Source: Tilletia caries
Lineage: Eukaryota > Basidiomycota > Exobasidiomycetes > Tilletiales > Tilletiaceae
DNA: 64,000 bases
NCBI GenBank assembly: GCA_032718865.1
Contig: JALUTQ010000004.1
Coordinates: 310,001-374,000, forward strand
Direction of reading: 5' to 3'
Below are positions 37,098 to 61,648 of this stretch, one piece after another (position 1 is the first letter of the stretch; the number at the start of each line of letters is the position of its first letter). The notes under the pieces are model-generated. The model was given only the letters and a program-made list of their open reading frames with translations. It was not told the origin of the DNA and did no database searches. A program made the translations under genes and the position numbers.

Positions 37098-37213
37098 CCA
37101 TGACCTGTGGCATCCCCTCCGCCTGGCCATTTAGACTAGACGCCACCAGCTAAAATATAAGCCCTAGAGGCAAATGTTGAGGCAAGTGTAACGAACGCCC
37201 CCAACATTTTTGA
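37098..37213 (+). repeat. Left arm of a 24.5-kb-spaced inverted repeat
   Basis: The core 37130-37183 (starts TTTAGACTAGACGCCA, contains AAAATATAAGCCCTAGAGGC) matches the reverse complement of 61563-61616 at 50 of 54 positions. Weaker similarity continues on both sides, to about 37098 (GTACCA) and 37213 (CAACATT). No matching target duplication was found outside. Either terminal repeats of a giant element or two copies of a small repeat in opposite orientation. Confidence 0.75.
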
Positions 37214-37581
37214 GCCACAACCTGTGTCACCTTCTCCAACTTGATCGCCTGATCGCTCCTGACTCTTAACTTCCCCCATTGCCCTATCATCGTATCCAAG
37301 GCTGTCGCGACGCTATTCGGCCTGACGGCGTGGCAGGATCGCAATGCGTCTCCCTCCATAGTCAGCATTAAGAGACAGCATGAGATTCAGTTTGAATTCG
37401 CGGCGCGGGCGCTTCAGCATGGGGACTTGGGACCGCTCCTACCACCCAACCGCTCTCCTTCGGACTTCGTCCCTCAGCAGTTCATCCCCCACCAATATCG
37501 TTCGAATTCGTTAATTTATTGCTGTGCTTTCCTGGTACTGTTTCCTTTTCCTGTCCGTCGTTGTCGTCGTGCCTCGCTGTA

Positions 37582-40500
37582 CTATGTGCTGGATACGTTC
37601 GCCCTCGCACCATCCAACAGCCCTCGCAATACACCTTCCATCGATCCCCCTTCTAGCGGCTCGGGCTCCTCATCGGAAGGATCCCCGTCCTTCTCCTTAT
37701 CACTCTCGTCACTAGAAGAAGAAGAGGATGAAGAGGATGAAGAGGACGAAGAGGACGAGGACGAAGAAGGCGATGCCGCCCTCTGCTTCCCATTTGACGT
37801 CCCTGCTTCGCCGAGGCCGGATGGCCGTCGTGCCCGAGCCGCTTGAGCCATTCGAAGCCGTGCCAGCTCAGTAGCAGGAGGTGGCTCCTTATCGTAGCGT
37901 ACCGTGAAGTCTTCCTCAGACGAGTCGTCGCTGTTGACCACAATCCGACGTCGGCGGCGAGGCCCTGAGCGACGGGTTGGTCGACGTTCGTTTTGTGGGT
38001 CCGAGTCTTCCGAAAACTCGCCGCCATTCGAACCGTCCTTGTCGGCCACGTCCCTCCTCATCGCTTTTGAACGTACCGTTACCGTCTCCCTACGCTTGCG
38101 CTTCGAGACCTTACGCGTTGCAGCTCCTGTCGCAGTAGAACCTGCGTCCGTCGCCGCATGAGAAGCCGCAGAAGATTCAGCCGGTGCACCCTCAACCGCC
38201 GTCGGAGCTCCAGCCGTCGTCCCCTCGATCTCCAACTCCACTTCCTTCCCAGCAGCGTCGATCCGTTTGAGTGCGAGGAAAGAGGGGTCCTGCACGAGTC
38301 GCGCCAGCAGCAGTTTAGCCTGGTCCCTGTCCCAGTCTTTGTAGTGTTTCAGGTCTCCTGAAATTACGGTGAGGGTGTTTGTCGCGACGCCCGGTTGATG
38401 CTTGCTGTCCTTCGATAGCATCCTATCTGCTGTCTCCGGCCACCCTGCGACCGCAAAGCCCATCTTCTCGACGAACCCAAACAGCTGGCGATACATGGCC
38501 ACGCGTCCTCCGTCTGTCCTCCTCGTCCACTTTGTCCACGCTTCTTGCTTGGCAGGGGTATCCTCGAACTCGTCAGTGTGCGCGGCCAGAGCCGCATCTG
38601 AGGAAGGGGGTTTCAAACGTCTATCGTCAGTACCCAGCAGTCGGTCGGTCTTGATCAGGTCCCCTGAAAACTCACGTAGTACTTTGACCACCGCCGGCCC
38701 CAGTAAGTCGCAGACCTGTTTCCAGTTGTGATCCGTCCGCTCCATTATATCGAAGTCGGCCTCGATTCGAACTGGAGTTGGCTTGGGCTTCGGTTTCTCC
38801 TTCTGTGCGTCATGTGGTTTTTCTTGCAGCGGGTGGAGGCTTGACTACGGAGGCATGCCAGAACGTCGAAGCCAACTTGTCCAGATCCGGCCGGCCGTTA
38901 ACCCGTCTCAGCGCCTTTTTGAACCTTTCGAGACCATGGGATCGACCAACATATACGCACTTCACTTGATGATGATGGGACGCGATGAAAGACACCATCG
39001 AGATCCCCCACAGATCTTCCGCTTCCGTGGTCTGTAGGGAGTTGCTAAGAATTATGAGCGCGATCTTCACGACTGAGTCAGATTGTCAGAAGCACTCACC
39101 ACTCGCAGGACCCGCTTTTGAAGTCGGCTTACGGCGGCTTTTGTCTTGTCCTTGCTCATGCCTTTGGCGTTCTCGCAGTTCCACGCCTTCACCTTCTCCA
39201 TCACTTCGACCATTTCATCGTCCCTGAGACTGTCCCAGTAACATGCGATTGTACGATTGTGCTCGTTTACATCCTCTCCAGCTGGGTTAAAAAAACCTGC
39301 GTGTGAGCATACAGCACAACGGCCAGCTTTGGACCATCCAGATGTCTACTCACGTTCGCGAGGAACCAAACCGGTCTTGGACGCCCAGGACTGGAATTGA
39401 TTGTAATCGCTCATCGTCTTCACCGAGAAACAACCATTGCCCTCGATGATAGTGTCCCTGATTTGAATCAAGGACATGTTGAACGTGTCTTGGATCCAGG
39501 TCGCCACCTGGCTGTTGTAGTCCCGCAAGGCTCGGCATGCAGCGAGACCCTCTTGAGAAGGCGTTACCCGTGCCTGAAATTGCGGTCGGCCACCATCATC
39601 ATTTGGAGATGCGCCCGTTCCAGCGCCTGCGTTCGTGTTGGATGCAGGTCCCGCTGCGGCACGAGCCATGGGGAAACGCGGGGGGGGAGGAGGGCCTCGT
39701 ATGACCGTTGTCGGTGCAGCTGCATTCGCTTGGGAATTGGCGCCTGCGGCCGAAGTTGCGGTTGTAGTCGAATGCGAGGCCAAGCCTTGCGTCGTCCCCG
39801 CTGTTGAAATAACACCCGAACGTCCGCCTGTGGTACCCACACGGCGCGGTGCACCGGTGTTGGCGTGGGAGCTTTGGATCGCACCGCGCCTCGCGCCGGT
39901 TGCTCGAGAAGGTGGTACATCTGACCCATTCAGAGCTCTAGCCAGAGCAGCGTTGGCAGACTCTCCTGGGTGAGTCGCGTTGGCCAGCGCCCCTGCGCGC
40001 ACATTCAGGTCCAGGTCCATCCCACCCCTGTGATTCGGTCTGGGTTGTTGATCCCGCGAGAGAGACTCCGCCAGGGCCCGTCCAGCGGCTGTCGAGTGAT
40101 TAGTGGACTGTCGTAGGTGATCGTAGAAATCTGGCCGGTCTTGTTGCTGCGAATGGTGCCCCTGTTGGGAATGGCCCTGTTGATGACGTTGCTGGTCTTG
40201 CTGGTGATTGCCAAATTGAGACCCTGAAAGGCTCTGGTGAAGAAGTTGTTGGCCTAGAAGAAGTTGTTGGCCTAGATGGTTGCCAGATTGAAACGGATCC
40301 TGCCGAAGAAGACCCTGCTGATGGCCGGATTGGTCTTGGAGACCCGGTTGGTGAAGTCGCTGCTGATGATGGTGTTGAAATTGGCGGTGCTGGTCCTGCT
40401 GATGGCCGATACCGTCTCGGGAGTCCTGTTGGCCGCGCTGGCCATGATTGGGCAGTTGTTGGTCCTGCTGATGTCCCTGTTGGCCCTGTGAGTGCTGGGA

Positions 40501-40810
40501 TTGGACCTGCTGGCCTCGTTGACCCTGCTGGAGAAACTGTTGGCCCTGCTGGTGCCCGGGGAGAAGACCTTGAGGGGCAAGCTGAGGGAATCGAAAAGTC
40601 TGGCGGTCAGGTTAAAGCAGACGGGGACGGGGTATGGCCCAGGCTCATGGTACTTACACCTTGGTTGTGCTGTGTAGAGCCTGACACCGGCTCAAGAGAG
40701 AGCAGCGAGTTGCGGTCGCCTGGTCCTTGCTGGGAGTAGTTGAGGTTGCCTGGCCCGTTGAACGAAAAGAACCCATTTCCGTTTGTCCCGGTCCCGTCGG
40801 CGAAGGCCAT
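37582..40810 (-). CDS. Unrecognised 967-aa Gln-rich protein with basic and poly-Ser/acidic C-terminus
   Basis: Six exons (40658-40810, 39354-40581, 39100-39296, 38849-39031, 38676-38802, 37582-38597) close in phase. The fourth intron is only 46 bp with an unusual GTAGTC donor, so that junction is the weakest. Residues about 50-250 are Gln/His/Gly-rich (QQGQQ, HQQDQ). An Ala/Thr-rich linker follows. About 390-620 looks like folded protein (YNSQVATWIQDTFNMSLIQI, ACYWDSLRDDEMVEVMEKVK, SFIASHHHQVKCVYVG). The C-terminus has nuclear-type basic clusters (RKVSKRKRRE, GPRRRRRIVV), a run of about 20 Ser and an acidic end. No family recognised. Gln-rich, basic and acidic segments suggest a nuclear regulator or a transposon accessory protein. 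It is the first gene inside the inverted-repeat block. Confidence 0.65.
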
Positions 40811-60480: not shown

Positions 60481-60489
60481 CTCTCGTGA

Positions 60490-60910
60490 TTGAGGCCGTC
60501 TGGATTGCCCGCATGTCTACCCTGGGACGCGACATAGGAGGAGAGGGTGGAGACGATGTTGAAGATGCCGGATGCTTTGTCGTATGCGATGCTGAACTGG
60601 AAGATGGGCTTCTTGATGAAGGCGTCGTTCCATGGGAATGGAATGCGCAGCTCGGGGAAGCGGAGTGCGTGCAGTTCCAGGACGTGGAACCACTTGGGGA
60701 GAAGGTCGCGCTGGGTTGCGAGGTTTCCTGCGCAGCCCTAGTTGCAGGCGTCCTGTCTGCTGCGGTTGAGTGTATTGAGGTAGTCCTGGTGCTTCGCTGG
60801 GTCCTCGCCGTGGCTGATGGTGATGATCGCCTTGACGGGTCCGGCAAGATCGACCTGCTCGGTGAGCTTGATGGGCACTCCGCACTGCGATGAGTGGACA
60901 CTGCTGCTCG
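60490..60910 (-). pseudogene. BRO1-domain (Rim20/PalA-like) fragment with nonsense codon
   Basis: The minus strand reads VPIKLTEQVDLAGPVKAII, YLNTLNRSRQDACN, then TAG at 60738-60740, then in the same frame GCAGNLATQRDLLPKWFHV, LELHALRFPELRIPFPW, AFIKKPIFQFSIAYDKAS, GIFNIVSTLSSYVASQ. This is the N-terminal third of a BRO1 domain, which in Rim20 and Bro1 binds ESCRT-III in pH signalling and sorting. Past about 60490 the conserved sequence stops. A 496-codon frame covering 60017-61507 is in another phase and is an artefact. Dead copy. Confidence 0.7.
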
Positions 60911-61532
60911 GCCATGATGCTCTCGTCCTCGTCGTCGTCGTTGTGATTGTCCTCGTCGCGTCGTCGTGGTTGTGATTGTGCCCGTCGTCGTTGTCGTGCT
61001 CCCCGTCGTTATCGTGCTCGCCTTCGCCGTGTCTTCCGCTGGGCGTAGAGGGGAGGCCAGGGACAAGAACTTTGACGGAGTGCCATCCAACGCGTCCGAA
61101 ACGTACGCGTCGGCCTGGCGTAGCGTGCGAGTTGGTGAGGTCGCGGCGGATACGGGAAGTGGAGCGGCAACACAGCACAGCAAGGGTGGCGGGCGGGGTG
61201 TTGGGTGAGCGTGGCACGCATCGCGACGCGCCTTACGTGTTGAAGGAGCGTTGCTGGTGAGGTACAGAGCTGGCGGGGCCTGAGTGGATCCTAAAAGGGT
61301 GTGGGATGAGTTGTGATCGAAAGTCGAGACGATGTTGGTTGAAAGGAGGGCGCTGCGCCGGTGCGTACTGCGTGCGCCAACGCGTCTGTTCTGTAGTCGG
61401 GTGGCGTGGATGGTGTGAACAGCTGCTCGGGAGAGGGGGAATCGACGGACCGGTTGATGCGATGGGAAGCAGCGTAGGGTAACACGGGAGGGAACGAGAG
61501 TGGACATGATGGGAATTCATTACTGCTCATTC

Positions 61533-61648
61533 TGGAGAATGTTGAGGCCATTCGTTAATGCGGCCCCAACATGTGCCTCTAGGGCTTATATTTTGGCTGA
61601 TGGCGTCTAGTCTAAACGGCACTGGGGAGGGGCAGCCAACGTTGGTAC
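61533..61648 (-). repeat. Right arm of the 24.5-kb-spaced inverted repeat
   Basis: The core 61563-61616 is the reverse complement of 37130-37183 (50/54). Looser similarity runs out to 61648 (TGGTAC) and in to 61533. Host-like sequence resumes beyond it. Confidence 0.75.

What the first reader, a model, noticed from the sequence alone, without database searches (positions are those of the whole stretch)
37098..61648. 24.5-kb block bounded by inverted repeats and holding a transposase, novel paired genes and many dead host-gene pieces
Seen: inverted arms (50/54 core identity); inside, a KDZ transposase, three unrecognised intact genes, and pieces of PRMT3, COQ6, MFS, Atg15, DEAD helicase and BRO1 genes, each with a different lesion. 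Flanking DNA on both sides has intact genes. Inference: a giant gene-capturing DNA element (the transposase, Gln-rich gene and zinc-finger pair as its machinery) or a non-recombining decaying segment. No target duplication was found, so neither is proven.
Basis: partly seen in the sequence, partly recalled or inferred. Interest (0 to 1): 0.88.

Follow-up and report, generated by a model that had tools for sequence, protein, structure and literature searches.

The report
Gene-scavenging giant transposon in bunt fungus
A 24.5-kb jumping DNA element in a wheat bunt fungus carries a transposase gene and helper genes plus broken pieces copied from at least eleven other places in the genome, seven of them recognisable host genes, and other copies show that some of these pieces moved with it.

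Summary
The block is real and is a transposon. A second, 7.0-kb copy with the same ends lies on contig C39 with a different 7-bp duplication. Right-end remnants lie on C30 and C22. About 80% of the block matches other places in the same genome. About a third (8.0 kb) consists of pieces of at least 11 scattered non-element loci. Seven parents have recognised domains: PRMT, COQ6-type FAD enzyme, DEAD helicase, PQ-loop, MFS, Atg15-type lipase, BRO1. Three pieces shared with the C39 or C30 copies differ by 0.6-1.0% between copies but by 3-9% from their parents, so they were captured first and moved afterwards. The KDZ transposase, a Gln-rich accessory gene and paired zinc-finger genes have relatives, in a similar order, in another KDZ family of this genome. 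So it is a giant KDZ element that collected host gene fragments, as Pack-MULEs do in plants. Giant KDZ elements and fragment capture are each known; I saw no report of the combination. Mobility today is unproven: the transposase frame is split here, and no empty site could be examined.

The parts
37095..37101 (.). left copy of the 7-bp target-site duplication GTACCAT
61645..61651 (.). right copy of the target-site duplication GTACCAT
37102..37209 (+). left terminal inverted repeat
   Evidence: 98% identical arm at C39:1132932-1133231
61537..61644 (-). right terminal inverted repeat
   Evidence: also at C39, C30 and, more diverged, C22
37585..40611 (-). accessory gene: exon ORFs 37585-38844 and 39349-40611 (Gln-rich), probably starting further upstream; exon structure only partly known
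37101..41408 (.). left core shared with the 7.0-kb C39 element (1.3% substitutions)
41467..41986 (+). captured piece from the PRMT-type methyltransferase locus C5:1279943 (the piece lies about 0.7 kb upstream of the domain)
42506..42760 (+). captured piece of a COQ6-type FAD enzyme gene, parent C35:782304-782593
42759..42829 (+). 71-bp piece of a DEAD helicase gene, parent C3:931498 / C3:729858
42821..42881 (.). short piece matching C28:406754 and C28:512558
42880..46798 (.). segment shared with a second, probable KDZ element on C27 (3.3% substitutions), holding the zinc-finger pair
43693..44547 (-). zinc-finger ORF 1 (like the BED-like protein of the second KDZ family)
45723..46658 (+). zinc-finger ORF 2 (weaker match to the same protein)
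47099..47794 (.). captured piece, parent C5:481773 (function not identified)
47840..47994 (.). short segment shared with the C27 element
47994..49083 (.). captured piece, parent C4:739223 (weak RRM match in the parent, outside the captured piece)
49073..49422 (-). captured piece of a PQ-loop protein gene, closest parent C28:1150456 (two more similar loci on C28)
49422..51559 (.). segment shared with the C27 element (4.6% substitutions)
51575..51935 (.). captured piece, parent C39:1845499; also present in the C39 element
51932..52724 (-). captured MFS transporter piece with internal deletions; some parts closer to the C9 paralogue, others to the C36 paralogue
52724..53071 (.). piece 76% like C36:1588800 (true parent probably not found)
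53245..54826 (-). captured Atg15-type lipase gene piece with an internal deletion, parent C22:803044-805056
55004..55748 (-). second piece of the DEAD helicase gene, parent C3:730073 / C3:930630
55874..58829 (-). KDZ transposase gene in two overlapping reading frames (ORFs 56721-58829 and 55874-56941)
59574..60179 (.). captured piece, parent C27:1101740 (no Pfam match); 59813-60179 shared with the C30 remnant
60490..61010 (-). captured BRO1-domain gene piece, parent C28:738192; shared with the C30 remnant and in part with C39

Best explanation
The block is one DNA transposon of the KDZ (Kyakuja-Dileera-Zisupton) superfamily, 24,543 bp between 7-bp target duplications, in Tilletia controversa or a very close relative. 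Shown: it has terminal inverted repeats and a target duplication; a second complete-ended copy (7,023 bp) sits elsewhere with its own duplication; the interior is a patchwork of element segments and pieces of at least 11 other loci; captured pieces are shared between copies and are closer to each other than to their parents, so they moved after capture. Inferred: the KDZ transposase with the accessory (Gln-rich) protein and the zinc-finger proteins acts on the inverted repeats and moves it by cut and paste. When the gap left by excision, or another break inside a copy, is repaired, the repair copies ectopic host genes and other KDZ elements into the interior and is sealed by end joining. The ends stay intact, so the enlarged element can still be moved.
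For: TIRs 82/101. Both complete-ended copies (2 of 2) have a 7-bp duplication at the same offset from their ends; 0.21% of 100,000 random pairs of positions reach 7 under the same rule. Mosaic with parents on at least 9 contigs. Parent loci carry PRMT, FAD_binding_3, DEAD, MFS, Lipase_3, PQ-loop and BRO1 domains. Shared pieces: C39:1845499 piece 0.6% between C4 and C39 but 4.4% and 3.9% from its parent; C27:1101740 piece 0.8% between C4 and C30 but 3.0% and 3.3% from its parent; BRO1 piece 1.0% between C4 and C30 but 8.7% and 6.8% from its parent. Related genes in a similar order in a second KDZ family with copies 96-99% alike; accessory-like loci lie within 20 kb of a KDZ match in 10 of 17 cases, the window's own included, 0.6 expected (copies of one family are not independent). 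BRO1, DEAD and MFS pieces differ from parents about evenly over codon positions (14/15/15; 10/12/16; 8/5/8 and 2/5/4), while the Gln-rich exon differs between copies mostly at third positions (5/2/17). Joints are blunt or share at most 3 bases in 15 of 15 tested. Published KDZ elements have TIRs of 139-241 bp and TSDs of 4-8 bp (PMC12810828, passages) or TSDs of 7-8 bp (PMC12730594, passages).
Against: No empty site or related strain could be examined. The KDZ gene has no close copy found in this genome and its frame is split in this window; a database protein of Tilletia controversa reads through both frames, so this copy may be inactive, moved in trans, or the sequence may hold an error. Nothing tested here shows that this KDZ protein acts on these ends; the 7-bp-TSD KDZ group (Kyakuja) is described as having CA..TG termini without TIRs, unlike this element. 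Microhomology at joints is not above chance (mean 1.13 against 0.68, p 0.058). Animal Pack-TIR gap filling is biased to nearby parents (PMC8277862, section 8), whereas only one of the 11 parents here is on the same contig, about 0.37 Mb away. Atg15, COQ6 and PQ-loop pieces differ more at third positions (2/6/15, 2/0/7, 10/10/17), and zinc-finger ORF 2 shows no clear constraint (15/19/21). No left end was found at C30 or C22. Pieces seen only in the C4 copy could have been added after its last move.
Confidence: 0.85

Rival explanations
1. A non-recombining, decaying chromosome segment that gathered duplicated pieces and by chance has inverted arms.
For: Many gene pieces without strong coding constraint in one place.
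Against: Target duplications at both complete-ended copies; the same arms and chimeric pieces at other loci; a neighbouring 20 kb shows matches almost only to many-copy repeats or paralogues.
Confidence: 0.04
2. Nested insertions: an ordinary small KDZ element into which many separate transposons, each carrying a gene piece, inserted one after another.
For: Giant KDZ elements of Ectocarpus often hold nested insertions of unrelated elements (PMC12477816, passages). A dispersed repeat is present at 53069-53215, and some parents exist in two or three genomic copies.
Against: Pieces abut each other with at most 3 shared bases at 15 joints, and 7 of 11 parent loci carry ordinary protein domains.
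Confidence: 0.06
3. The KDZ gene is itself a passenger, and another transposase, not in the block, moves these ends.
For: No KDZ match at C39 and none at DNA level elsewhere for this gene except at 67-68%; its frame is split. The C27 locus shares 8 kb of interior but its KDZ exons are only 37-51% identical in protein.
Against: TSD and TIR sizes fit KDZ elements, and the accessory gene lies near KDZ genes in about six families.
Confidence: 0.12

Closest known systems
KDZ transposons of fungi, e.g. KDZ1-KDZ3 of Cryptococcus (PMC12810828, passages read) and TET/JBP-bearing KDZ (PMC12730594, passages read)
   Same: KDZ transposase with CxC-type cysteine cluster (here just below cut-off), TIRs, short TSD, size of about 10 kb or more.
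   Different: 24.5 kb, pieces of at least 11 other loci, Gln-rich accessory and zinc-finger genes. No TET/JBP domain was matched in the frames scanned, which did not cover every frame of the two ends.
Giant KDZ elements of algae (PMC12477816, passages read: up to 30.3 kb in Ectocarpus)
   Same: Size, extra genes, transposase frequently predicted pseudogenised.
   Different: In the passages read their insertions are nested transposable elements and transcribed genes, not fragments of many host genes.
Pack-MULE / Pack-TIR elements of plants and animals (PMC8277862, abstract and section 8; PMC8903248, listing only)
   Same: TIR element with host gene fragments between its ends, joints with little or no microhomology.
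   Different: Different superfamily; Pack-TYPE elements are described as non-autonomous, while this one holds a transposase gene and helpers; parents are not nearby.
Histone H3 transduplication by hAT elements in Pyrenophora and Pseudocercospora (PMC3538342 passages; PMC6710886 abstract and passages)
   Same: Fungal DNA transposon with captured host gene.
   Different: One captured gene, hAT superfamily. A separate KDZ family in this genome carries an H3-type gene (noticed in passing).
Starship giant elements (recalled; PMC11623301 and others seen in listing only)
   Same: Large fungal element with cargo.
   Different: Starships use a tyrosine recombinase (recalled); here a KDZ transposase, TIRs and fragments.

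Membership tests
KDZ DNA transposon | KDZ-domain transposase between the ends | tested here: met
   PF18758 7.1e-52, positions 2-215 of 217
KDZ DNA transposon | CxC cysteine cluster | tested here: inconclusive
   PF18802 2.7e-5 and PF18803 2.3e-4, both below curated cut-offs (24.7 against 26.9 bits, 21.8 against 27)
KDZ DNA transposon | terminal inverted repeats (Zisupton and Cryptococcus KDZ; Kyakuja described without) | tested here: met
   82/101
KDZ DNA transposon | 4-8 bp target duplication | tested here: met
   7 bp in 2 of 2 complete-ended copies
KDZ DNA transposon | transposase acts on these ends | not testable with these tools
   needs an experiment
KDZ DNA transposon | uninterrupted transposase reading frame (marks an active copy, not the family) | tested here: not met
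   two overlapping frames; a Tilletia controversa database protein spans both
Pack-type (gene-fragment-carrying) TIR element | host gene fragments with parents elsewhere in the genome | tested here: met
Pack-type (gene-fragment-carrying) TIR element | fragments moved with the element | tested here: met
   three shared pieces closer between copies than to parents
Pack-type (gene-fragment-carrying) TIR element | non-autonomous, no transposase | tested here: not met
   KDZ gene present in the C4 copy; no match to it in the C39 copy
Pack-type (gene-fragment-carrying) TIR element | introns retained (DNA-level capture) | not tested
   pieces are collinear with genomic DNA, but gene models of the parents were not available

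The most novel reading that the evidence does not exclude
Tilletia genomes hold a lineage of giant KDZ transposons with a conserved kit (transposase, Gln-rich accessory protein, zinc-finger proteins) that repeatedly swap modules with each other and collect host gene pieces, and in other members whole genes such as histone H3. They would act as gene-shuffling engines in a fungal group where I saw no description of fragment shuffling of this kind.
Probability: 0.5. Interest if true: 0.76.

Novelty: new variant of a known kind. Interest (0 to 1): 0.64.

Why it matters
Gene-fragment capture on this scale is best known from plant Pack-MULEs and from Helitrons. Here it appears in a KDZ element of a basidiomycete that still holds a transposase gene and likely helpers, with parents, copies and chimeric joints all present in one genome. 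That makes the order of events (capture, then movement) readable from sequence divergence, and gives a natural series in which to ask how transposons take up host DNA. It also links accessory genes without any Pfam match to KDZ elements.

Tried and rejected
Rejected: decaying segment; nested transposons; misassembly (pieces differ from their parents by 1.4-10.6% in substitutions; the KDZ protein of this block occurs in a database entry of Tilletia controversa, and a partial relative of the accessory protein, 88% identical over 60%, in another). C27:724667-732373 was first counted as a host donor. It lies about 4.6 kb from KDZ exons in the expected orientation and holds the zinc-finger pair, so I now treat it as another KDZ element; its ends were not seen.

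Led nowhere: Pfam scans of the block's own six frames from 41.4 to 55.9 kb found only DEAD, a weak Lipase_3 and a weak YL1_C match. Homology search with the second-family accessory protein found nothing. The tRNA scan (bacterial code) found none. Microhomology excess was not significant. The right-end ORF 60020-61516 (499 aa) has no Pfam match and overlaps the BRO1 piece, so I do not count it as a gene. I did not run structure prediction. The script found no loci to read and was repeated.

Counts: the KDZ list has 38 rows; 33 positions were used (5 rows dropped as further exons of the same gene). The H3 list has 35 rows; 32 used (3 dropped likewise). At least 2 of the 17 accessory-like rows match only the low-complexity end of the protein; they are counted as misses. 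Literature lists were capped: for example 30 of 68 papers naming Kyakuja, Dileera or Zisupton were shown.
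Full report
What is there. The window is G000:C4:310001-374000 of a 38.1-Mb, 40-contig genome. A database protein of Tilletia controversa is identical to the block's KDZ product over its first 646 residues and 99.7% identical over the other 306, so the host is that wheat bunt fungus or a very close relative. The block's arms are 82/101 complementary with a 50/54 core. Comparing the ends with those of other copies fixes the boundaries: in C4 the element is flanked by GTACCAT on both sides (37095-37101, 61645-61651), in C39 by GTGAATT. 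Seven-base repeats under the same rule arise in 0.21% of random pairs. One further base also repeats in C39, so the length could be 8 there; 7 is the length supported by both.

Copies. The arms occur at four places. C39 holds a complete-ended 7,023-bp element made of the left 4.3 kb of the block, an inverted piece of 50839-52061, then pieces 55445-55770, 60895-61389 and the right end. C30 holds 1.8 kb of the right end, and C22 a more diverged right end, apparently interrupted by 5.3 kb. I found no left end at C30 or C22.

Mosaic. Of 24,546 bases, 19,643 match elsewhere in the genome and 8,016 match loci that are not copies of this element, the C27 element or the dispersed repeat (from the matches). 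Parent loci with recognised domains: a PRMT-type methyltransferase (C5:1279943; the domain lies about 0.7 kb beyond the copied piece), a FAD_binding_3 enzyme of COQ6 type (C35:782304), a DEAD helicase (C3, two near-identical genomic copies, sampled twice in the block), a PQ-loop protein (C28:1150456, with two more similar loci), an MFS transporter (C9/C36), an Atg15-type lipase (C22:803044) and a BRO1-domain protein (C28:738192). Four further parents are unnamed: C5:481773, C4:739223, C39:1845499, C27:1101740. Substitution divergence from the parents runs from 1.4% (one of 71 bases) and 2.6% up to 10.6%, which suggests captures at different times, though parents under selection change more slowly. 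A 20-kb control left of the block matched in about 3.0 kb (16.0-17.0, 17.4-17.6, 17.7-18.5, 18.5-19.5 kb and one 66-base match), mostly to many-copy repeats or paralogues (not all candidates scored).

Joints. At 15 joints tested the switch from one source to the next is blunt or ambiguous by 1-3 bases, not more than in random joints (p 0.058). In the MFS and Atg15 pieces internal stretches of the parent are missing. The MFS piece resembles the C9 paralogue in one part (92% against 82%) and the C36 paralogue in another (95% against 87%).

Capture came before movement. Three captured pieces were compared in two copies of the element. The copies differ from each other by 0.6%, 0.8% and 1.0%, but from the parents by 3.9-4.4%, 3.0-3.3% and 6.8-8.7%. 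This is the strongest evidence that host DNA was taken up in an ancestor and then moved with the element.

Machinery. The KDZ gene lies at 55874-58829 on the minus strand. In this window it is in two overlapping frames; the database protein spans both. The accessory gene (minus strand, exons within 37585-40611) has matches at 16 further places, some weak, and 10 of the 17 loci lie within 20 kb of a KDZ match where 0.6 are expected. Four of these are copies of one family and two more look alike, so about six independent families support the link. A partial protein of T. controversa, 88% identical over 60%, covers part of this gene and joins it to an upstream exon. The second family (C30:491463 onward, also C19, C5, C23, C39; 96-99% identical) has the order accessory, zinc finger, histone H3-type gene, KDZ. 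Its zinc-finger protein has a weak BED match, below cut-off, and matches both zinc-finger ORFs of the block (E 1e-26 and 2e-4); its KDZ and accessory proteins match the block's. Five copies of this family share one exact end. The Gln-rich exon differs between C4 and C39 mostly at third codon positions (17 of 24), zinc-finger ORF 1 differs from its C27 relative 7/6/13 and ORF 2 15/19/21. Against their parents, BRO1 (14/15/15), DEAD (10/12/16) and MFS (8/5/8, 2/5/4) pieces differ about evenly; Atg15 (2/6/15), COQ6 (2/0/7) and PQ-loop (10/10/17) pieces lean to third positions, so they may be younger or reflect the parent's constraint.

Module exchange. The interior 42880-51559 is collinear with C27:724667-732373 at 3.3-4.6% divergence, interrupted by three other captured pieces. 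The C27 locus has KDZ exons about 4.6 kb further on, but these are only 37-51% identical in protein to the block's. So either the transposase gene or the interior was exchanged between KDZ families. This is inferred; the ends of the C27 element were not seen.

Mechanism. Most likely cut-and-paste movement by the KDZ transposase, with host DNA taken in when breaks or excision gaps inside a copy are repaired from ectopic templates and closed by end joining. The patchwork, the abutting joints and the intact ends fit; the repair route itself is not shown. The 11 parents lie on at least nine contigs with only one on the block's contig, unlike the nearby-parent bias of animal Pack-TIRs (PMC8277862, section 8); later movement of the element would erase such a bias.

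Comparison with the literature. KDZ elements with TIRs of 139-241 bp and 4-8 bp duplications move in Cryptococcus (PMC12810828, passages). Kyakuja elements have 7-bp duplications but no TIRs, Zisupton 8-bp duplications (PMC12730594, passages). Giant KDZ elements up to 30 kb are reported in Ectocarpus, and KDZ elements of fungi are said to carry accessory genes often (PMC12477816, passages). Pack-TIRs in animals and histone transduplication by fungal hAT elements are known. Helitrons of Pleurotus are reported not to tend to capture host gene fragments (PMC4289320, abstract). In searches of the held library (capped lists, titles and abstract starts only, apart from the papers named here) I saw no report of a KDZ element with pieces of many host genes. 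Subscription papers, Iyer et al. 2014 among them (known to me from recall and from a reference list), were not read. Hence: a new variant of a known kind.

Noticed in passing
L072 about 4505-5106 (C30:498119-498712) and copies at C19, C5, C23: A second KDZ family carries a histone H3-type gene (PF00125) with an H3-like N-terminal tail, fold and C-terminus in separate frames, read by eye. The genome has up to 32 H3-like loci, 8 of them within 10 kb of a KDZ or accessory locus, five of these 8 in copies of this one family; hAT elements of other fungi captured H3 too.
   Followed up: partly
window 36271-36757: Short copy of a dispersed element whose two ends occur 5-7 kb apart at several loci (C22, C4, C25, C30); one copy begins 95 bp outside the C30 right end.
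   Followed up: partly
window 61854-61905 and 62308-62359: 94% inverted repeat around about 400 bp just right of the block, perhaps a small inverted-repeat element.
   Followed up: no
window 17723-19520: Cluster of many-copy repeats, mostly 95-99% identical to other loci.
   Followed up: no
C23:904968-910287: 5.3-kb insertion inside a second-family KDZ copy, with a 9-base overlap of the match, perhaps a nested element with a 9-bp duplication.
   Followed up: no
C3:729858-730799 and C3:930630-931568: Two 98.5% identical, oppositely oriented copies of the DEAD helicase region 200 kb apart.
   Followed up: no
L033 688-1887 (C27:723854-725053): Myosin-head match in an ORF next to the shared C27 segment, perhaps another captured piece.
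   Followed up: no
window 51304-51564 and 54922-55015: Short tandem repeat arrays inside the block.
   Followed up: no
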